NCBI GenBank assembly: GCA_000697355.1
Contig: JNEN01001165.1
Span: 1 to 64,000, forward strand
DNA from: Syncephalastrum monosporum B8922
Taxonomy: Eukaryota > Mucoromycota > Mucoromycetes > Mucorales > Syncephalastraceae
Length of the DNA stretch: 64,000 nt
Direction: 5' to 3'
This document shows, one piece after another, positions 47,677-61,128 of the stretch (positions are counted from its first letter, which is position 1; every line of letters starts with the position of its first letter). The notes beneath the pieces are model-generated. The model saw only the letters and a program-made list of their open reading frames with translations. It did no database searches and was not told where the DNA came from. Position numbers and translations under genes: made by a program.

Positions 47677-48947
47677 CGACTTAAATGCCTTTTACCAGCA
47701 CTGACGACTGTGCGCAGATCGGAACTGCTCTTGTTCTTCGCTTGGAGCGCACGCGAACTCTAAGTTCATGCAAGGTAAAAGTTCTCAAATTGTACGCGAC
47801 GTTTCAACATTCCTTTTTGTTACAGCCAACTGCGGCAGACTTGTCCCGAACTCACCACGTCTAATGAATACATGACAACTCCACAGGCTCAGCCAAATAG
47901 CTATACTATCCTCAGATGCGGCTCTGTGGCTCCCGACTGCTGTCTGAAGCCGTCCTTGTGAAGAGGCACAGCTCGTTTTTGCTTGATTGCGGAGCCCTGC
48001 GGCCGTGAGCTTTTATCCTGACCTTCTGTGAGCAGCAGCCTGCCGTTTTTTTTTTTTTCTTTCTTGTGTCAGTCCCTAAAGTACCCGGCATCTGTGAACT
48101 AATGTCATTCGAAAAACAGAGCGCTCGTATAAGCTATAGAAAGCATATTGAGTTATGCTTTCTTTGCAGGTAAACAGAACTTACGTCCGGCTCCTCCCTT
48201 TCAGAAAACGTCTGTTATAGTCTGAAAGGACCTTTTCCTAAAAAAAAAAGTTCGATTCGAATAACCGAGTTATAGAGCCTGAAAACTTGGAGCATTGCGA
48301 GTAGTTTTTTAGAGACAAAGATGACTCGAGCTTTTGCTCCGTCTAGCTACAAGGATAGTGAGGAAGCAAAATGATTTAGTTGACCTACTAACAAAGTGGG
48401 GTCTTTTGGGCCCAATTGTATTCGGCTTAAACTGAGCTATCATACACACTTTTTTGGGTTCCCTTTTACCCCATTGCCTTTAGTATCTCAGGATATAAAT
48501 GATCTCAATTAGAATCTTACTTGATCTTACATAGGCGAGTGATATGCACTATTCACATACACTATCCCAAAAACGCTACGCGTTGCTGTTCGCTAACTTA
48601 TGTATAAAAGTGTCGTCGCTGTCCGAGGTACAGCTGGAAGACACGTACCGAATACGTTTTGGATGCCACTGGCGTAGCGAGTGAGTAGGCGGGGTACAAC
48701 CCCTCTTATTAAAGCTCCACGAGAATGCGATGGGCTCAGTTACATACACTCTACCATTTCAGATACGTTGAAGCGCTGTCATGGGTTGGATAGAGCCATT
48801 CAGGGGCAGCGGCAATGATTCTGTGTATAGTTAGTTTCTGGATATCGGAAATCAATCACTGGATGACCATTTTTCTCTTTTCTGGTGAATAGAATGGAAT
48901 CAAAAAGAAATGCCTGTCCGTCATTTTTTAATTTTCTTCCCGCAGCC
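47677..48947. other. Intergenic
   Basis: No gene supported. Holds the upstream region of the WW-domain gene; a plausible 5'-UTR intron acceptor (ttttcttcccgcag) ends at 48945, two bases before its ATG. AT-rich elsewhere with short T and A tracts. Confidence 0.5.
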
Positions 48948-49664
48948 ATGAGTAGCAAAGACCCAAAAAGCCCTACGCCTGATACTCGAGAAGAAGAAAA
49001 CACAGAGAAAACGACGCAGGACGTCCAAGTCAACAAAGACGAAGCACCGTCCTCTCCATCGTCGAGTGATCCGCACGTAGACACCCGAAAAGAAGAAGGA
49101 CAGAACGACACATCCAAAGAATCCACAGCGGATCCGTCCGACGATCGTTCAGCAACAGCAGAGGACAAAAAGGAAGACACAAAGGAGGAGGCACCGGCGG
49201 GATCATGGGCAGCAGCATGGAACGATCAGTACCAGACGTACTACTGGTGGAACACGGTTACCCAGGAAACCACCTGGGAGAATCCCTACGAGACGGGCCG
49301 GGCTGTCGCGCCTCTGCCACCGTCCGAAGGCGAATCACCTGTACCGCAAGAATCAAGCGATGGGGCACAGCTCCCGCCGCAGACGTATGCCTACCAGGCC
49401 TACTTTAACACACGTACCGGCAAATTCCAGGCCGCGAGCGACGTCGATCGTCTGAATCCCGAGCGCATGTCCATCGAGAATCGGGCCAAGCGGCAAATGC
49501 AGTACTACTTTGATGTCGACGCTTATACCGAACAGCGGAACCAGGAACGCATGGCTGCCCAGGCAGGCCAAAAGCGACCGCTCACCAAACGCGATATCGA
49601 ACGCTTCAAGAAAGCCAAGCATGAAAAGAAGATGAAACGCGCGCGAGAATGGCTGTGCGATTGA
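48948..49664 (+). CDS. WW-domain protein
   Basis: Protein of 238 aa in one coding exon; function unknown. The start (MSSKDPKSP) lies two bases after a strong intron acceptor (ttcttcccgcag), so the 5' UTR is probably spliced; upstream in-frame Met codons are then intronic. The N-terminal third is highly charged and Ser/Thr/Glu-rich. One WW domain (about 84-115) has both tryptophans and the central aromatics (SWAAAWNDQYQTYYWWN ... TTWENP), expected to bind Pro-rich ligands. The C-terminus has FNTRTGKFQ, NRAKRQMQYYFDVDAY and a basic Lys-rich end with EWLCD; I recall similar C-termini in uncharacterised fungal WW proteins but cannot confirm. The basic tail suggests nuclear location. Convergent with the TAF2 gene, 212 bp between the stop codons. 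Confidence 0.88.
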   Translation: MSSKDPKSPTPDTREEENTEKTTQDVQVNKDEAPSSPSSSDPHVDTRKEEGQNDTSKESTADPSDDRSATAEDKKEDTKEEAPAGSWAAAWNDQYQTYYWWNTVTQETTWENPYETGRAVAPLPPSEGESPVPQESSDGAQLPPQTYAYQAYFNTRTGKFQAASDVDRLNPERMSIENRAKRQMQYYFDVDAYTEQRNQERMAAQAGQKRPLTKRDIERFKKAKHEKKMKRAREWLCD

Positions 49665-49876: not shown

Positions 49877-52800
49877 CTATGACTCGTTGATCTTGGGTCG
49901 CTTGGACGGATCATAATAGTCATCATACTCGTCGTCGTATTGCTGGAAACCCCGTTTACCGTCCGAGGTAAGCAAGCCATGGGCGGGCGGCATGAGCTGC
50001 ACCGGCGCCTCCTCGGCAGGCGGCATCACGACCGGTGCGGGCGGGGGTACCTTGCTCAGCGCATCGCTGGTCTTGAGCGCCTTGGCTGCACAGAGCTTGT
50101 TGAACTCGTTCTCGAGCTCAATGCCCATCTGGTACACCACGTCGTCCGGCAGATTGAACGTGTAGCAGTTGATAAATACCTGCTCCGCGTCCTTGAGCAG
50201 CTGGGCTGGCTCGGTATACTTGCCCTGTTCAAACTTGGTGCGCATCGTGCCGAAATCCATCGGATGCTTGATAATGTCAAAGTAAGTCGGCACCTGGAGC
50301 AAGACAGGGTCGACGGGGGCGCCAAACGCATAGTAATGCGGATGGTTCTGAAGTTTGTCGAGCACCTGCTTGTATTTGCGCAGCTCGGCCTTGGCCCCGC
50401 TTGCTTTACTGGAGCCAGAGGCTTTGCTGCTGCCCGAAGGGGTGGGACGCTTGGTCGCAGGGGATGCAGACGACGATGCTGCTCCTGCTGCTGCTGCTGC
50501 TGCTGGACTCGCAGCAGGCGGTACTTGCTGTTGCTGTTGCTGGCGCACCTGCTCTTCCTTCTTTTGCAGCGCAGGCATCTCCTTATTGAGCAGCTTTTCA
50601 AGCACCTTGGCATTCTGCGACACCGGGTGGTCAAAGCCGTTGAAGGTGTAGCAGTTGGTCAACATGAGCCGGATATCATTCTCAAACTCCTTGACCGTCC
50701 TGTACTCGCCTCGCTTCAGCTTCGCTTCCCTGGTATAGAAGAATATTAAGTTTGCTATCTATGGCAATGACTTTGCAAGGTCTTACACTGTGCTTAGATC
50801 CATCGGCTTCTTGATAATCATCGGATAATGCGGAATACCGAGCGCGATGGGGTCGACGGGCTGCAAGAAAGCGAAGGCCATCTGGTGGTTCATGAATTTG
50901 GAGAGCAGCGACTCGACCTTGGCCTTGACCTGCGGGGCCATCGTCTTGGGTTCCTTTGGCGACACCGGCGCGGGTGAAGGAACCGAGGCGGGCGTGCTTG
51001 CGGCAGGCGTCGCCGGAGCAGGACTCGCTGAAGTTGCAGAAGGCGCCGAAGCTGCAGGCGTCTTGGTGCTGCTGCTACCGCTCGGCTTACTGGGTGTCTT
51101 GGCCTTGGACGGCGTCTTGGCGCTCGTACTGGCAGCAGGCATATGGGTCGGGGTGGATGCCTTGGGCGATGCGCGCGCGGGCGACGCCGCGGCTGCGTCC
51201 TTCACCCGGTGCCGTAGCTCCTTGCCGATATTGCTATTGTAGTACTTTTCGAGCCGCTTGCCTTGCTCGTACGCAAACGTCGTCGGCCGGTTGTACGCAA
51301 AGCAGTTGGCAAACACGAGCCGGATATCGGCATCCACGTCCCGCAGATCGGTGTACTTGCCCGACGCGATCCGCTCCGCGATGGTCCTCAGGTCCATCGG
51401 CTTGGCAACCACCTTGAAGTAGTCCGGCAGAGCCTCTGCGTCGACGGGCTCCCGGAAGAAGAGCGACGCGTCGTGGGCCAAGAGCTTCGTGACGACCTTG
51501 GTCACGAGCGCAAAGTCGTCTCCGACCAGCATGTGTGGCTCGCCAAACTGCTGCCGCCAGAGCTCGTTGAACAGCGTTTCCACTTCCTTGGCCTGCTGTC
51601 CGATCCAGGACGTCACATCGTTGAAGCGGTAGCAGTTCCAAAAGATGAGGCGCGTCGTGTGCTCAAATTCACCCACGGTCGCAAAGTCGCTCTCGTCGAG
51701 CTTCCGCCGCAGCGTGCCGAGGTCCATGGGCTTCTTGATGATTTCATAGTACTGCGGGATGTTGGGGTCGACCGGGTCGTAGAAGGGCGGTGCGGCCGGA
51801 TGCTGCCACAGCTTGTCGAGGATACGGGCGCAGTGTTGCTTGTTCTCCTCGGTCATGCTGGCACTGACCGCCCCGTTCACCTTGGCTTCTTTGGAGACAG
51901 CCTTGGCCTGGGCAGGCGCACCCGGCGCGGCGGCCTGTTTCGCGGGCGCTGGCTTGTTCTGCGCCTTGGGCTGCGGCGCTTTGGGAGGGGGGGTCGGCTT
52001 GGAGGGCGGTTCAGAAGCCTTGGCGGCTGTGGGCTGTTTGGCCTGCGCGGGCGACGGCGCCGGTTTGGGCGGTTTGGCAGGCGGCTGCTGTGCGGGCTGC
52101 GTCTGTTTCGACTGCGCAGGACTGGCAGTGGCAGGCTTGGCAGGAGGGCGATGGTTGGGTTTCGCAGGCTGCGTGGGCGAGGCCGTTTGGGCCGGGGAAG
52201 CAGAGGCAGTCGCCTTGGATGGCGTCGAGGTAGGCGTGATAGATGGAGCGGAGGAAGAGGATGGCTGCGGTTTGTGGGAGGCTTTGGCTTTGGGAGGCGA
52301 GGCATGCTTCTTGTCACCAAAGTACTGCCGCCATGCCCGGGTATAGTCTTCTTTGAGAAGCATGCCTTTCTGGTAGACATAGGACGGCGGTGCGTTGAAC
52401 GAGAAGCAATTGTTGAACATGAGCTGCATATCCGCATCAAAATCGCTCGCGGACGCGTATTTGTTCTGCTTGAGATTGGTGCGGATCGTGCCCAGGTCCA
52501 TGGGATGCTTGATCATAGTAAAGTAGTGCGGGATGCCCTGCTTGATTGGATCCACGGGTTGCATAAACTCGTACGCGTGCTCGCTTTCGATCGTGCGCGC
52601 CAGGACGGCAATGCATTTTTCTCTGGGCGTCTTTTCGCGCTCGACCTTGGGCTCGGCTGGCTTGGGCGGCAGCGGCGAAGGCGTTGGCGTGGCGGCCGAC
52701 GCGGTCGCGGTCGTTGTCGTTGTCGTGGCGGGTGCTGCTGTTGCTGCCACCGGCGTCGGTGCCGCTGCAGGGGCGTGGACCACCGTGGTGCCCTCGGGTA

Positions 52801-55800
52801 CGGAGGGCTCCGGCCGGGTATGCGCGATGGTGGTGCCCTCCGGCATCGATCTACCATCCTGAGCCGCCTTTTCGTTCTCCTTGTCCAAGATGGCCTGGAG
52901 TTCTTTCTCAAACACAGTCTCGAGGGCCTGACCCTCGTCATACACGAACGTGCCCGGGCCATTGTACGCGAAACAGTTGTTGAGCATCAGGCGAACGTCG
53001 TCCTCGAGCTCGGTAAACTTGGTGTACTCGCTCGACTCGAGCTTTTCCCGGATACGACGCAGATCCATTGGGTGTCTAGACACAGAGAAGAGGGGGGGGG
53101 GGGGAGCGAGAGGTGAGTAATGCATAAAAGAAAGAAGTCACTTTCTCCAACTCACTTGATAATCTTGTAGTAATCAGGCGCGCCATCATTGACCTCGTCC
53201 ACAGGCTGCATAAACGGTGCCGCTGAGCGGTGCCGCTGGAGTTTGCCCAGCAATCGACGGCACTTTTTGAACTCGCTGAGAGACATGTTATCCGGCTTGC
53301 GGGTTGACAGCTTGGGTACGGTGGGCGTGGCGGATTTCTCTGGAGCCACAGCAGGTACCGGCACCGGGTGCTTGGTGGATTCGACCGATACAGGTTTCTT
53401 TTCCGTCTTGCCGTTGATCTCCTTTTGCTTGTCTTTTGTAGGCCCAGGCAAGGGCTGCTGCTGTTGTTGTTGCTGCTGCTGCTGTTTCGGCTTGTTAAGC
53501 TTGAGGATAGGCGGAGAAGGAGTCGGCGGTTCAGAAACGTCTTCTGGAATATCCTGCACCTGGAAAAGAAAAATGATAAATCAGATGGACTGATCAAGCA
53601 GAAAAAAAGGAAGGCTTTCTGCATGACTTTTTTTTTTTTGGCTTACCATCAAGGCTGGCATACGGATGGTCACCTTAAGACCAACGTCGGCAGGCTTGAA
53701 GAGGTATTCACAGATCTGAAGTAGGTTCTTGCGGATGCAATGATCAAGTGCAACGCTCTTGCTCGTACTAGTAAAGACGAAAGGTGAGACACACCCTCCC
53801 CGGCTATCCCCCCAACTTGGACTCACTTGAGAAGATTCCAGAGGTCCTGTTGGAGCTCTGTGTTGTTCTCGAATTGCTTGCGCAGGTTTTCGAGGTTGGC
53901 GATTTCCTCGGATTCCGCGGTCTTGCCCATCTTCCAGCGATCCTCTTCGAGGGGCGCCCGGCCCTCTTCTTCGGCAAACTCTTCGACATAGCGATTCTGG
54001 AATACGTCTGCCTTTTCCTTCATGGCAGGGCCGAGCCAGGCCAGCATCGCGCGTGTGACGTAATGCGAGACATGTGCGCACGGATCATTGACAATAATGC
54101 TCAAGAGATACTCCACGAGCTTATTGTCGTTCAGACCGCGCAGGACGATCAAGCTGTCGAGCGCGCACAGGCGGATGCCAAGATAATTGCCGTACCTATT
54201 CCGTTTGTGAGTAGGGGCATACTACCTTTCGCGCCTGCTCTCATTTACCTCGTGTATTGGACAAATAGACTCCAGTCGGGTTTGATAATGTCATTGAGCA
54301 TCAGCTTCGTGAGAGTCTAATCACACGTCATTAGCAAGAAAAGACAAAAAAAAAAAAAAAGCCAGGCTCGGTAATCACAACGTTTACCTTTAAGCAGCTC
54401 ATGGTGACCACGTTGTGATAGGTGGGAATGACGCAATCCAAGGTACGGAACCGCTCAATCTCAGACACGGCTGCCTCGAGCAGCTTTTCGTTTTCCGGGT
54501 CATCCTCTTCCATGCCGTCGACAATATCCTGGGTGGGTATAAAGGCGTCGCCGAGGGTAGAGATGATGGTCGCAATGTAGTAGCCATCCGAGAACTCATT
54601 ACCGATATTGTCATTGTACTTGAGTAGATCCAGCAAGAACTGGCGCACCTTAGCCGGCGTGCGGCCGTACGGGTCGCGGACCTGAGAAAACGCAATGACG
54701 ACCCCTTTCTGGACAAAGTAGTCCGGCAACGTGGAAAAGTTGTTGGGCTTCGGGATCACGGGTGCGAGCGGGATATGCGTAACGCTATCGAGCTGACTTG
54801 GCTGGGTCGGGAAGCAGAACCGCGCCACGAACATTTTGTACAGTTGGTGGAGGCCGACGTAATCCAGCGCTGCACCGCCACACTAATAAAAAAACAGACA
54901 TTGATGGATCAGTTATCCGAACGAGAAGGATGCGAGGGGTGTGTCTTACCACCGCCAAGGCATAGGCCGCCTCCATGCGGATTTTGTAAAAGCACTTTGG
55001 GTCCAGCACGGCGCGGAGCAAGCTGGTGGTCGTGGGCAGGGATGGCATGTGCTTGAGCGCCTCAATGGCCTATAAAAACACGCGTCGTAAGGCACGGCTC
55101 ACTCTTCGCTCCCAAAGCAAAAGACTTACATCGTACTGGGCCACAACATCACGGTCCTTGGTCAGCTGACCCGCCCACATATAGTCCGGCTGAGAGAACT
55201 CGATGGCGCAGAGCCATTCAAAGTCGGCGTCGAGGCGGATCCAGTCAAACATGGCACTTGCCGCACCGCTCGTATCTTCCTCGTCCTGACCCCACTCGAC
55301 GACCTTCCACTGCTCGCGCTGGACCGGGTCTTCAAACACCGGCATACCCAGGCCCAGCGCAGGAATGATGCCGAGCACGTTTGTTGTGCCACCTTCACCG
55401 TCCTCTTTTTCCGCATCCTCTTCGGCCACCGCGGCTGCGGCCGCCGCCTGCTTGGCCAAGAATCGCTTCGTGTTGCGTCGGATACGCTTGTACTTTGTGT
55501 TGAATTGGACCTCAAACTTGTGCTTGGTAGACTGGATATCGAGGATATGTTCGTACGGCGTGCCGTCGGCTTCGTGGATGCGCACGGTGAGGTTGCCGGT
55601 GAACATGGGCGCGACCATGTCGAGATAGTCGACGCCGCCTTCCATGTCGAGTGAGGGTGGTGCCTTGGTTTTGGGTGGGCCCAGGCAACTGTTTGTGTTT
55701 TCCTGCCGCATATAAAACTCGACGACCATCTTCTTGCGGTTAAAGTGGAATGAAAACTGGAACTTGGGACATCCTGAACGATAGACCCATTGGTCCGCAA

Positions 55801-58050
55801 AGGTCTTTGTGTCGAAGCCGCTGACCTTGCGGCAGAGGCGCATAAAGTAATGGGTGCCGAGCGCATTGTTGACGAGCTCGCCACTGATGGCGGAGACGAG
55901 GATCTTGGGTATCACGCGCGAGAGGCCGAGGGTAGCACCGCCCTTGCACATTCGCTTGTCGAGCATGTACAATACGAGTGGCGCTTTGAGCTCAATAAAC
56001 TCGAGGTCTTCTGGATCCAGCGGAGATGGCAAGGCCAGGTTGTACAGCGGCGGTCGGTTCACATCCAATGAACAGCAGAGCTCCATGTCCTAAGAGGTGT
56101 GTGAATAGCGATCCCGATAGCATTCCGAGTCCGTTGGTACTTACGCGCTTCATTCGTAACCGGAACTCACTGTTGCCGAGGTGACGTTTGATGAAGAGGG
56201 CACCCATAAGGTTGGCCATGCCGTAGATGAGCCAAGCATCCGCCCAGTCCTTTTGTACAATATGAATGCCAAACCACTGTTTTGCCAGCGCCAGGCTGAG
56301 TATCCGCCGTGTACTGTAGGTCTGATCAATGATCTCGGGTGGGTGCAGTAACCGCGAGCTACGAATGTCAGATTCAGTTCAGTCTTTCGTTCTCACCATC
56401 ATTTTCTTATTCATCGCTGCGCTCTTACCTGCAAATAGCGAGTGATGCACTAGAGGCGGTATCTGTCCATGCATCTTCGACAAAGACGAGTTTATAGTCC
56501 GAAAAGGGGTAGGAGCCGTACTCTTGCGCATAAAAATGCATTGCCTGATGTCCCTCGAGGGTTAATTACAATTCTTTCCATGCCAAAAAAAAAAATATAA
56601 TGCAAAGAGCCGTGATACTTACATGCATGAGAAATGAACAACTGACATTGAGCTCCTCTTCTTGACCGGGCAAGGCAAAGGCGTAGATGGTAGACATCAT
56701 GTTGATTTCGGCGAGCAGACTCTGCTGCTGGTTTTCGTCGAGGTTTGCACCGGTCAAGACTTCCTCCTGGAGCTGGGCGGGCGTCAGTTTGATGGTCTCA
56801 AAGGGGCCAATGGCAAAACCGATAAACGGCGCTGCGGTCGGGACGGGCAGATTGTAGCGCACAATCTTTTTGTTGGCATCCAAGGGATGAATGACCTGCC
56901 ACACAACGTTGAAAATAGATGAGCACACAGACACACACGCACCTACACACATAGATTTTGCTTTTTTTTTTTTTACCTGCTCCACGACTTCGCCTGAGCA
57001 GACGACCACAGTTGGGTATTCTTCCTCGTCCATCATGATATCGCCATCCCCATCCGGAGTCGCCAGCGAGCCGAGTTTGGCGGGCACAATGAATTCCATT
57101 TCCCATGTACATCGTTCATGGATACGGTCAATGCAGGGTAGCCATGCACGGGTTGCTCCGGGTAACGGCTGGCCGACGGTATAGACATGATGATACCGCT
57201 AATGCATGCAAAAGGTAATGATAGAATGAAGGAATGAATATCGAATGAATATCGACCATGTCGGAATAGGTTGCGCTTCGCTTACGTAAGGAGCTACGAT
57301 CTCATCGGGTTCGACAAAGACAAGGCCGGTTTTCGGATTTCGCAGGACAAATTCGATGCCAATGACGACGGGCGCGTAGGTTGGTGCCTTGTGCGTGGGA
57401 GCATTCTCGTCCTGCAAGTCTAAATACGGGGCGGTTCAGCATATCAGATCAGATATGATATAGAAAGCGAGCGTTCTCTTTACCTGTTTGTGAAGTGGTG
57501 CTGTGCAGATACACATCGCTTGTTAATAGGCGTGCTTCTGACTCGGACATCTAGCGAAAAGGGGGAACAGCATAAGTAAGTACAAAGAAGGTAGAGACAA
57601 ACGGAGACGGACCTGCTGAATACAGTCTGGGGGTATGGAAACGCGAAGTTCGCCCTCGTCTGCTTCTCGTAAGGCGGTAAGGTATCTGCTTTTGTAAACG
57701 TGATGATGGCCGATCGTCGAATTCGCGTCCAAGTTGAGTTCGGAAACGGGATCGCAGTACGCATGTTGGACGGGTTGGCCATTGACGGTGGTGCGAGTGA
57801 CGTCTTTTGACAGAGGGAAAAGGGTTCAATGGAGGAAAAGTGGGGGCCAATGAAAGACGAGGGAGCTTACCGAGTTGCCGACAATTGATGCGCACTGTCG
57901 TGAGTTTGTTGTGTGTAGGGTGGATCGTCAATTCTGCCGAGCCCTGAAGTCGCCGGTCTGCGTCAGAGCCCAAGTCATCTTGTACTTATTTATTATTCTA
58001 CCTTTATTTGCCGTCGACTCGGATCCACTTCTACAACGAACCGCTCATGA
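49877..58050 (-). CDS. TAF2: TFIID subunit TAF2 fused to six bromodomains (5' end incomplete)
   Basis: Very large TAF2: about 2,339 aa seen, start exon not found. Eighteen exons: 58002-58050, 57871-57943, 57613-57803, 57484-57550, 57286-57419, 56977-57198, 56623-56895, 56429-56544, 56145-56358, 55130-56089, 54950-55069, 54388-54882, 54249-54316, 53827-54195, 53647-53767, 53156-53559, 50787-53075, 49877-50729; every phase joins. The first ~1,157 aa are TAF2 (M1-aminopeptidase-like, no HExxH): HERFVVEVDPSRRQIKG, AKQWFGIHIVQKDWADAWL, then the helical repeat half ending LKVTIRMPALM. Six bromodomains follow, at roughly 53310-52870, 52620-52320, 51840-51540, 51510-51225, 50930-50580 and 50390-50070. 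Each keeps the PVD ZA-loop motif and the acetyl-lysine Asn (FAYN, FSFN, FRFN-type). Ala/Pro/Lys linkers separate them; the end is acidic then basic. BD1 and BD5 are split by introns, so the fusion is one transcript by splice logic. Confidence 0.9.
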
Positions 58051-58913
58051 CTCGTAGAAAAAACGAACAAGGGCGAGTTAGGCTTGACATGTGGGATATA
58101 GAGGATAGAATACTTATAGAGTGAAAGCCTTTTTGGGGGCGTCTCGTTGCATCACAGCTTTCGTCTCTCTCTCTCGGCAAGGCAGCAAAAAAGCACACAC
58201 TTGGGAAGCAGAGCAAAAGATCACCCTTCTTGCAGGCGGACTTGCAAATTTTACCCGTGACGCGCTGAGCGATCAAATAATTCACTCCATAACAAATTTC
58301 ATTCTTTTTTCCATTGCCATATCCAAATAAAGCTCGCATTCATTCCATCATGGAGCTCTTTACAGGAATGAATCATGATAGCCTATCATGTGTGGGAGAA
58401 ACAAAATAAAAAACCACTGCCGAACGCAACTGCGTCCGACGGTGTAGGTGTGCAGCATTGACCGAACAGCTCGCTAGTCTGCAATCATGTAGATATGGAT
58501 GTATGTGCTTTGGCAACAAACAGTGAGAAACGCCACTTTGGGGTTTATTTTACCGATCTTTGCTCGATGACAGGCAAGCTTTAGAATGCTTTTTTTTTAA
58601 GTCGATAAAGTAAAAAAAGGGAGCCAACGCCTGCATACGTGTTAGCTCAGGAACACCAGAGGACGTGCCGATCCGTGCTTCAGCAGCATAGCACGAATCT
58701 AAGCCATATACGGTATCTTATGCCATGAACCCATTCGCTGTGATGCGTTCCAACCAACTCTGGAAGGATATATGTATCTCATGTATGAGCATGTCTGCTG
58801 TGTATGCCTGGATGGATCATGTAAAAAAAATGCGATGCAAAGTTTATTTGTATATGTAAATAGGGAAAGAAAAAAGGGCAAGGAAGAGCAGAAAGAAAGA
58901 AAAAGTAAGCAGA
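58051..58913. other. TAF2 5' region and UTP5 3' flank
   Basis: The start codon exon of TAF2 must lie here. A good branch site (CTAAC) and T tract precede the acceptor at 58051, so at least one upstream exon exists, but I could not identify it with confidence. The rest, to the UTP5 stop, is AT-rich spacer. Confidence 0.5.
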
Positions 58914-61128
58914 TTAATAGTCCTCGTCCTCATCCTCATCCTCGTCGTCGTCTTGTTCATCTTGATCCATCAAATCGTCGTCGTCTTCGTCTTCACTTGC
59001 GTCGTCTTCTGCGCCGCTCATGAAACCATCCAATTCCTCGTCGTCTGACTCCCGCTCGGCGTCGTCGTCCGAATCCTCCTCGACGTACACGTTCTGAGCA
59101 TGCTCTGCGCCCTCCTGCTCGGCCACAAACTTGGACCGGATCTCGATCTGGTTCTGGATCAGGTCGAGACGGCCCTGCAGCGCGAGGAGCTTGGGGAAGA
59201 CCGAGAGACGGACATCGAGGGCCTGGTAGAAGCTCGAGAGCTTGTAGACGAGATCGGGGACGGTCATCAGGTAAGTGGTATGGACCATCAGGACGATGCG
59301 GATCCAGACCATGAGCCGTGACGCGCGGTTCGGGCTCTCTTGGAATCGCGCGATGAGCTCGTTAAGCAAGGGGATGATGTAGGCGGTCGGTACGCGTTGG
59401 ACGGTGGTCTGGATGACTTCGGGTTTGTTGTGCTCCAAACAGGCCTCGAGCAGGGCGCGGTCGTTGGCATGCAGGGCTTGGGTCAGGACGGTCTGGAGCG
59501 AACCCGCCGAGGGCACGAGACCCTTGTCAGTCTTTCGCTTCGTCGAGGGCTGGCTGCCGTTCTCTTCGACGTGCATCTCCTGCAGCTTTTCTTCGATGGA
59601 CATGTCGGGCTCGGCCATCTCGACGTCTTCCTTCATGGTCGGGTTCTGGATCGCAAAGTCGGTCGCGCCCACCACCTTGACAGACGACTCGTCGTACTGC
59701 TTTCGTGATGCTTTGACGTTCTCTGCTGCGGCCGAGTCGTCGTTGATCAGGAGGTTGCCTGCGGGCTGGCGTGTTAACACAATGTCGCTCAGAATATCGC
59801 CTGTGTTCTCATTGACGTATCGCTACAAGACAGAGACACATGTGTGAATATAAGCAAACGTCGTGTCGTGTATATATATATATATGTGTGTGTGTGTGTA
59901 TTGTATACATACCACTGCCTCAAAGGAAGGACGGACACTCGATCCACGTGCAATCATGATGGACTGGCCATAGTTATCCGAGACAAAGGTCGCGGACAGG
60001 ATGGGAATAACCGTATCTTCGGCTTTGCTCGACACAACCTTGACAGTCGAGTCGGTCTGACGGGTGATACTCCGGGCTGCTTTCCGCCGGCTGGTGGGCG
60101 TGGCCTGCGAGGAAGCGTTCCGCCAGAGACCGACGACACCATCCTCGGCGACGGCGAGCACGGTGGGCTCGCTGCCGCTGAAATCGACGTGGGTGGCGTT
60201 GTCTTCCAAGGTGAGGACGGTCAGCGTGGTTGTGTTGGTGTTTGTGGATTGAGCGTCCCAGACGTTCACGTAGCGGTCGTCCTCGGCGATGGAGACCAGG
60301 ATATCGTCTTGCCTAGAGAAGGCGAGTTCGCGTATGGGGCTGGCGTGGCCCGAGAACTTTTTGATGACCTTGCGCTCTCTTGCGTCCCAGAGTGTGATGA
60401 CATGGCCGGCCGTCGCCAGTTTCCGCTCGTCATGACTCAGCTTGAGTTTACGCATGTTTTTCTCGCTCGCCTTCCATTTCCTATCCAGCCCGTTTAAGTA
60501 CGCTCGCCTTGCCATACAATAAAAACGGATCTCTATGCACTTACGCAGTCTCCTTCTGAAGGGCAATGTCCCACTCGACGATGTAGTTATCTTCTGCGAT
60601 GGAGTAGCCCTGGGTACCGGCCTTGTTGAGGCAAAAGTCGGTGACAGGCATGGTGTGTGCGCCGCTCAGCTCCTTGACGATCTCGCCATGGGCCAGCGAG
60701 AACAGGTGGATCGCGCCGGCGTGTGTGCCGAGAGCGACCACGCGTGTCTTCTCTCGAGAGTTCCGGTTCTTTTTGTTCGCATTGGCGTTGGAGGACTAGA
60801 TTAGAGGAGGAAAACCAAGAGTTGTCAACATAAATAGAAGCTTGCAGGTGCGATCGATCCTTACTTTGCCGAGACCATCGTCACGGATATTGCCCCAGCT
60901 TAAGCTGGTGTATTTGGTCTTTTCTTCGGAGGTGTAGTCGTTGTTGACGGTGCCGGAGCGCACGTTGTAGACGCGGAGACGGTGACGATCGATGCCATGC
61001 GAGACGAGGGCAAAGTACTCTGCGTTCGAGGTTGTGTCAAAGGCTTGCAAGATCCCGGCCGTGGCAGCCGCATTGGCTTCGACCGCAGCCGTGTGATTGT
61101 TCGCAGAAGTGCTCTTTGCCTTGCCCAT
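58914..61128 (-). CDS. UTP5: UTP5/WDR43, small-subunit processome
   Basis: WD-repeat protein of the t-UTP/UtpA part of the SSU processome, needed for pre-18S rRNA transcription and processing in the nucleolus. Four exons (60865-61128, 60545-60795, 59913-60480, 58914-59822) join to 663 aa (yeast Utp5 643, human WDR43 677). The N-terminal propeller starts with ILQAFDTTSNAEYFALVSHG and HRLRVYNV; repeats end in VITLWD, YVNVWD and VVGLWR. A Utp12-type helical domain (about 455-585) has LLEACLEHNKP, YIIPLLNELIARFQ and RASRLMVWIRIVLMVHTTYL. The last 75 residues are Asp/Glu-rich. Intron 3 holds a TA/TG microsatellite (59870-59900). Divergent from the EST1-like gene, 825 bp apart. Confidence 0.95.

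What the first reader, a model, noticed from the sequence alone, without database searches (positions are those of the whole stretch)
49877..58050. TAF2 fused to a six-bromodomain array
A complete-looking TAF2 (about 1,157 aa) continues through in-phase exons into six bromodomains (about 1,180 aa). In animals the TFIID bromodomains sit in TAF1 (two), and in budding yeast in the separate Bdf1 protein. Here six would sit on TAF2, the subunit that touches promoter DNA. All six keep the PVD motif and the acetyl-lysine Asn, so all may read acetylated chromatin. I do not know of a described TAF2 with six bromodomains, but I cannot search.
Basis: partly seen in the sequence, partly recalled or inferred. 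Interest (0 to 1): 0.88.

Follow-up and report, generated by a model that had tools for sequence, protein, structure and literature searches.

The report
Fungal TAF2 carrying six bromodomains
In this mould, and in many fungi other than the yeasts and other ascomycetes that were checked, the promoter-binding TFIID subunit TAF2 carries a row of acetyl-lysine-reading bromodomains at its end, a job that animals give to TAF1 and baker's yeast to a separate protein.

Summary
The minus strand, 58152 to 49877, encodes one 19-exon gene: a complete TAF2 (about 1,170 aa) running in frame into six bromodomains (2,351 aa). No transcript data were available, but three things support one protein. Fennellomyces has almost the same residues across the doubted exon junction. 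A second TAF2 copy in the same genome runs into its first bromodomain in one uninterrupted frame. And 120 of 120 listed long homologues carry the fusion. All six domains keep PVD and the acetyl-lysine Asn.

The fusion is not unique. It occurs in Mucoromycota, Zoopagomycota, a chytrid and Basidiomycota, mostly with 2 to 6 domains; 13 of 29 listed Mucorales entries have six. The ascomycete TAF2s listed lack it, so it probably arose early in fungi and was lost in Ascomycota. TAF1 of this genome ends without a bromodomain.

Most likely the array is TFIID's own acetylated-nucleosome reader, carried by TAF2 instead of TAF1 or Bdf1; this is inferred from sequence. Databases already name such proteins TFIID subunit 2; my searches of open papers listed none describing the array, and one relevant review could not be read. 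Verdict: a real, ancient and apparently undescribed variant.

The parts
49877..58152 (-). whole gene, 19 exons, TAF2 plus six bromodomains, 2351 aa (ATG at 58152, TAG at 49879-49877)
   Evidence: model; Pfam; homologues
58118..58152 (-). exon 1, 11 codons (MQRDAPKKAFT) plus 2 bases
   Evidence: matches N-termini of P0001 and P0002
58054..58117 (-). intron 1, AT-AC type (ATAAGT...CCTAAC...CTAC), 64 nt
   Evidence: inferred from the homologous N-terminus, not from cDNA
56160..56628 (-). M1-peptidase-like region of TAF2 (three exons); LALAKQWFG stands where active M1 peptidases have HExxH-type zinc ligands (recalled)
   Evidence: Peptidase_M1, 26.8 bits, just below the 27.7 cut-off
55187..55777 (-). 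TAF2 Ig-like domain (PF25316)
54003..55186 (-). TAF2 C-terminal TPR-like region (PF25577), several exons
53560..53646 (-). intron at the TAF2/bromodomain junction, GTAAGC...CCAG, 87 nt; encoded residues on both sides conserved
52889..53262 (-). bromodomain 1, split by intron 53155-53076
52322..52615 (-). bromodomain 2
51548..51832 (-). bromodomain 3
51218..51505 (-). bromodomain 4; joined to BD3 by a linker of exactly 14 residues in 15 of 15 six-domain proteins
50567..50917 (-). bromodomain 5, split by intron 50786-50730
50081..50374 (-). bromodomain 6

Best explanation
This is the TFIID subunit TAF2 of a Mucorales fungus (placed by its closest homologues), in a form that appears ancestral for fungi: a TAF2 core (M1-peptidase-like, Ig-like and TPR-like regions) with a C-terminal array of bromodomains. 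Shown: one in-frame gene, intact reader residues, conservation of the array across fungal phyla, no bromodomain on TAF1 in the same genome. Inferred: TAF2 sits at promoter DNA within TFIID, and its arm of six readers binds acetylated tails of neighbouring nucleosomes, so that acetylation raises TFIID occupancy by avidity. That is the role given to TAF1's double bromodomain in animals and to Bdf1 and Taf14 in budding yeast. BD3-BD4 form a closely spaced tandem of fixed spacing; the other domains hang on longer linkers of varying length.
For: In-frame spliced model. Pfam and PDB matches for both halves. 120 of 120 listed long homologues, of 379 hits, carry two or more bromodomains after TAF2 (the candidates had to be long and the scored region included BD1, so the list is biased towards fusions). 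Junction residues conserved. Paralogue with TAF2 and its first bromodomain in one open frame. Domains group by position: BD2 (94), BD4 (92), BD5 (97) and BD6 (99% ultrafast bootstrap) across the sampled Mucoromycota. Asn kept in 407 of 430 full-length domains. BD3-BD4 model at mean pLDDT 92, both halves bromodomain folds. TAF1 frame followed to its stop without a bromodomain.
Against: No transcript, protein or binding data. The genome also has two loci with bromodomains and an ET domain and three YEATS loci, so reading may be shared with other factors. Domain number varies from 2 to 6 (one fragmented entry gives 7); 16 of 29 listed Mucorales entries have four or five, some of them partial models or second copies. 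The first domain has T or S instead of Asn in 23 homologues, so not every domain need read acetyl-lysine. BD1 of Endogone and Mortierellales does not group with BD1 of Mucorales, the BD3 group takes in a chytrid domain of another position, and the basidiomycete second and third domains do not group with BD3-BD4, so the history of the array is not fully positional.
Confidence: 0.8

Rival explanations
1. Two neighbouring genes, a plain TAF2 and a separate multi-bromodomain protein, merged by the gene model.
For: An intron lies at the junction, and an internal Met (MSLSEF) precedes BD1; no transcript was seen.
Against: Residues on both sides of the intron match Fennellomyces without a break; full-length homologues in several fungal phyla; the paralogue needs no splicing at the junction.
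Confidence: 0.03
2. The array binds acetylated non-histone partners or holds TFIID in clusters, rather than reading promoter nucleosomes.
For: Long Pro/Ala/Lys/Gln-rich linkers (by eye) of varying length; bromodomains in general can bind acetylated non-histone proteins (recalled).
Against: Best sequence matches of the domains include histone readers such as BRD4, Bdf1 and GCN5; the position on TFIID favours nucleosomes (inference).
Confidence: 0.15
3. BD3-BD4 are TAF1's own double bromodomain, moved from TAF1 to TAF2 in early fungi.
For: The TAF1 of this genome lacks bromodomains; TAF1 tandems are among the top Foldseek matches across both domains; full-length TAF1 chains align collinearly over BD3-BD4.
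Against: TAF1 domains do not group with BD3 or BD4 in the tree, although only 60-80 residues of each were available; the tandem does not superpose as a unit on TAF1 (TM 0.36-0.44, rmsd 8 A or more), and a BRD4 chain ranks first over both domains.
Confidence: 0.08
4. Some domains are vestigial and the array is drifting under weak constraint.
For: Variable number across lineages; Asn lost in the first domain of 23 homologues.
Against: All six in the window keep the key residues; among 430 full-length domains no exception lies outside a first domain; the BD3-BD4 linker is 14 residues in 15 of 15.
Confidence: 0.1

Closest known systems
TFIID subunit TAF2 of yeasts and animals (6hqa Taf2; 1,199-aa TAF2, human by recall)
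   Same: Same core: M1-like, Ig-like and TPR-like regions; 6e-146 and 1.6e-99.
   Different: Budding-yeast TAF2s listed have no bromodomain and the human one has none by recall; the S. cerevisiae Taf2 tail binds Taf14 (PMC6220335 and PMC9177701, passages seen).
Annotated but apparently uncharacterised fungal TAF2s, such as Sporisorium 'related to TAF2', Suillus 'Taf2', and Cryptococcus CNAG_03273
   Same: TAF2 core followed by bromodomains (CNAG_03273 not searched here). PMC12844337 (passages) reports CNAG_03273 as a TAF2 orthologue hit by Spt7 only through the bromodomain region.
   Different: The basidiomycete forms listed have three domains (70 of 71) or two; this one has six.
TAF1 double bromodomain (TFIID, animals)
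   Same: Tandem bromodomains on a TFIID subunit.
   Different: Another subunit, six domains, tandem does not superpose as a unit.
Bdf1/BET proteins
   Same: Domains of similar sequence; Bdf1 is linked to yeast TFIID (reference title seen in PMC9177701).
   Different: No ET domain here; covalently part of TAF2.
Polybromo PBRM1
   Same: Six bromodomains in a row (five pass the threshold, the sixth does not).
   Different: No BAH or HMG domain here; fused to TAF2; different complex (recalled).

Membership tests
TAF2 (TFIID subunit 2) | TAF2 Ig-like (PF25316) and TPR_TAF2_C (PF25577) domains | tested here: met
   5.9e-31 and 1.2e-56, both above cut-off
TAF2 (TFIID subunit 2) | M1-peptidase-like fold without catalytic zinc motif | tested here: inconclusive
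   Peptidase_M1 26.8 bits against a cut-off of 27.7; LALAKQWFG lacks HExxH by eye
TAF2 (TFIID subunit 2) | present in the TFIID complex | not testable with these tools
   needs purification
Bromodomain | PF00439 profile and fold | tested here: met
Bromodomain | acetyl-lysine Asn and ZA-loop P/V/D | tested here: met
   six of six
BET/Bdf1 | ET domain (PF17035) | tested here: not met
   not among the five Pfam families at E <= 0.001; ET matches lie at three other loci of the genome, two of them with bromodomains
TAF1 | DUF3591 core (PF12157) | tested here: not met
   absent; the genome's TAF1 lies on contig C172
Polybromo/RSC1-2 | BAH and/or HMG domain with the bromodomains | tested here: not met
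   no such family

The most novel reading that the evidence does not exclude
Fungal TFIID originally read acetylated chromatin through a bromodomain array on TAF2. Ascomycetes, which supply the model yeasts, lost it, and yeast Bdf1-TFIID and Taf14-Taf2 contacts are later replacements, so a major mode of TFIID recruitment has been overlooked because the model yeasts and animals happen to lack it.
Probability: 0.45. Interest if true: 0.78.

Novelty: new variant of a known kind. Interest (0 to 1): 0.58.

Why it matters
TFIID is the first general factor at most promoters, and how it senses histone acetylation is worked out in animals (TAF1) and budding yeast (Bdf1, Taf14). A covalent array on TAF2 in mushrooms, moulds and a chytrid would be a third solution and perhaps the older fungal one. 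It makes a testable prediction (array removal weakens TFIID at acetylated promoters) and suggests that results from ascomycete yeasts may not carry over to many other fungi.

Tried and rejected
Two-gene model: rejected. TAF1 origin of BD3-BD4: not supported; the overall origin of the array (BET-like or other) stays unresolved, because deep nodes of a tree of about 80-100 residues carry little weight and only seven human reference pieces were used. TAF1 tandems were absent from the 50 rows shown by VIA; that list is filled by single domains and shows nothing either way.

Literature: searches in the open PMC library gave capped listings (for example 20 of 55, 30 of 88, 6 of 43); in them I saw no paper on bromodomains of TAF2, and the phrase search returned 0 papers. 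I opened passages of four papers, none in full. A review on TFIID evolution (10.1101/gad.300475.117, identified from memory) is not held and could contain it.

Open lineages: Geosiphon (1,117 aa), Ambispora (partial) and Coemansia biformis (partial) appeared without bromodomains, whose length limit excludes long proteins. The same list holds short entries without PF00439 from groups that do carry the array (Phycomyces 849 aa, Rhizopus 901 aa, Suillus 1,117 aa), presumably truncated, which I did not check. An early script did not find the start and was redone.
Full report
Observation. The gene lies on the minus strand. Joining exons at GT-AG sites gives one open frame from the TAF2 N-terminal region to a TAG at 49879-49877. 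I saw no ATG in frame ahead of the first of those exons. A further exon, 58152-58118, joined by a 64-nt AT-AC intron, supplies MQRDAPKKAFTL ahead of SHERFVV, which matches MQRTFTLSHERF and MQRAFTLSHERF of Fennellomyces and Zychaea. The full model has 19 exons, 2,351 residues and one stop; residue numbers are 12 lower. Pfam finds TAF2_3rd, TPR_TAF2_C, a sub-threshold Peptidase_M1, a DUF7877 match inside BD4 and six bromodomains. The TAF2 part matches Taf2 of 6hqa (K. phaffii by recall) and a 1,199-aa TAF2 (human by recall).

One protein or two. The junction intron (53646-53560) could in principle hide a transcript end. Three results speak against that. First, Fennellomyces reads VTIRMPSLVQDIPEDLSEPPTPSPPVLKLNKPK where the window reads VTIRMPALM, intron, VQDIPEDVSEPPTPSPPILKLNKPK; Zychaea and Radiomyces show weaker versions of the same stretch. 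Second, the same genome holds a second TAF2 on contig C154, 64-70% identical over about residues 173-905 and 33-42% towards the ends. Its 358-codon open frame runs from the TAF2 C-terminal repeats through the linker into the first of two bromodomains. Third, among 120 listed of 379 long homologues, 120 of 120 carry two or more bromodomains by a profile built from the window's six: 3 with two, 71 with three, 27 with four, 4 with five, 14 with six, 1 with seven fragments. That search admitted only proteins of about 1,290-4,090 aa and its scored region included BD1, so it says nothing about TAF2s without the array.

Distribution. The 14 six-domain proteins are 13 Mucorales entries and one Endogone. 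Of the 29 Mucorales entries (P0001-P0029), 13 have six, 3 five and 13 four; several of the shorter ones are partial models or second copies, but Rhizopus microsporus and R. delemar entries also have four. The two Umbelopsis entries and most Mortierellales have four, Dispira four, Tieghemiomyces three, Calcarisporiella two, Spizellomyces (a chytrid) five. Of the other 71 proteins ranked 49-120, 70 have three and one two; those with names are Basidiomycota. For Ascomycota, a 6hqa Taf2 query that admitted proteins up to about 2,290 aa listed 120 of 1,265 hits, the named ones budding yeasts; none of the 120 has PF00439 and my profile finds nothing above 2.1 bits. A search limited to short proteins (about 394-1,254 aa) listed 120 of 438. 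It includes complete-looking TAF2s of Schizosaccharomyces, Pneumocystis, Saitoella, Protomyces, Lipomyces, Penicillium, Monascus and Blastomyces without PF00439; 3 of the 120 do carry it, two basidiomycetes and Basidiobolus, all partial. That limit would hide any longer ascomycete form, and short entries from array-bearing groups also appear in it. The simplest reading is presence in the fungal ancestor and loss in Ascomycota; this is an inference from presence and absence, not a reconstructed history.

Array anatomy. For a tree I took 22 of the 121 proteins (96 domains spanning at least 80 profile positions), 13 other bromodomains of the genome and 7 human pieces. Domains group by position across the sampled Mucoromycota for BD2 (94%), BD4 (92%; 99% with the fifth chytrid domain), BD5 with the third Mortierellales domain (97%) and BD6 with the fourth Mortierellales and second Calcarisporiella domain (99%). 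BD1 groups only for Mucorales with Umbelopsis (88%); Endogone and Mortierellales BD1 fall elsewhere. BD3 of Mucorales, Umbelopsis and Endogone forms a clade only together with the first chytrid domain (99%). Basidiomycete second and third domains do not join BD3-BD4. The likely reading is a six-domain array before these Mucoromycota split, with BD5-6 missing in Umbelopsis and BD3-4 in Mortierellales. BD3 and BD4 are separated by exactly 14 residues in 15 of 15 six-domain proteins, while their other linkers range from 33 to 303. The Asn is kept in 407 of 430 full-length domains; all 23 exceptions are a first domain, and the named ones are smut fungi, Malassezia and four Boletales by recall of their taxonomy. 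AlphaFold2 gives BD3-BD4 at mean pLDDT 92 and pTM 0.84. Foldseek lists a BRD4 chain first and then many human TAF1 tandems over both domains, with rmsd of 8 A or more and query TM 0.36-0.44; Rsc4 tandems follow. Single domains fit at about 1-3.6 A in the rows shown. BD3-BD4 is thus a tandem, but not shown to share the TAF1 arrangement.

Context in the genome. TAF1 is on contig C172. Its frame runs through a zinc-knuckle-like stretch (by eye) to a stop at L041:6527, followed by a gene that looks like an aminotransferase by eye, with no bromodomain in the 9.5 kb searched. Two loci with bromodomains and an ET domain exist, a third ET match without a bromodomain, and three YEATS loci, so other acetyl readers are available.

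Mechanism. For yeast, PMC6220335 (passages) describes Taf14 and the C-termini of Taf8 and Taf2 as a yeast-specific module that may stand in for the metazoan Taf1 double bromodomain. PMC9177701 (passages) contrasts Taf1 bromodomains in metazoa with Taf14 YEATS in yeast. PMC3770614 (passages) reports that H3K9 or H3K14 acetylation on H3K4me3 nucleosomes raises human TFIID binding 1.2-1.4 fold and says TAF1 can explain it. In the fungus here the readers are part of TAF2 itself. I infer that the array reaches neighbouring acetylated nucleosomes and raises TFIID occupancy by avidity, with BD3-BD4 as a closely spaced pair. I found no test of any of these steps in such a fungus.

Novelty. Databases already name many of these proteins TFIID subunit 2 and record both domain sets. 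PMC12844337 (passages) reports that the Cryptococcus TAF2 orthologue was hit by Spt7 only through the bromodomain region; in the passages seen it does not discuss this. Eight searches of the open library, with capped listings, showed no paper that describes the array; subscription papers and one relevant review were not available. I therefore call it a new variant of a known kind, with the caution that it may have been noted in print I could not read.

Noticed in passing
58117-58054 (minus): First intron appears to be AT-AC with a U2-like donor (ATAAGT), a CCTAAC branch-like motif and CTAC at its end; a rare intron class by recall.
   Followed up: partly
L040 2306-7792 (contig C154): Second TAF2 gene in the same genome with two bromodomains, both resembling BD1 of the window gene (VDExxDxAPxYY by eye). 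Dichotomocladium, Zychaea and Sporodiniella each have two TAF2 entries in the homologue list.
   Followed up: yes
window protein residues 1852-1887, within BD4 (numbering): Pfam DUF7877 (PF25289) matches this gene and three relatives inside a bromodomain; the model may partly describe bromodomain helices.
   Followed up: no
48867-49664 (+): Convergent neighbour reading a WW-like motif (YYWWNTVTQETTWENP), ending about 210 bases from the TAF2 stop (by eye).
   Followed up: no
58914-60795 (minus): Upstream neighbour with WD-repeat-like sequence and an acidic tail, by eye resembling a ribosome-biogenesis WD protein.
   Followed up: no
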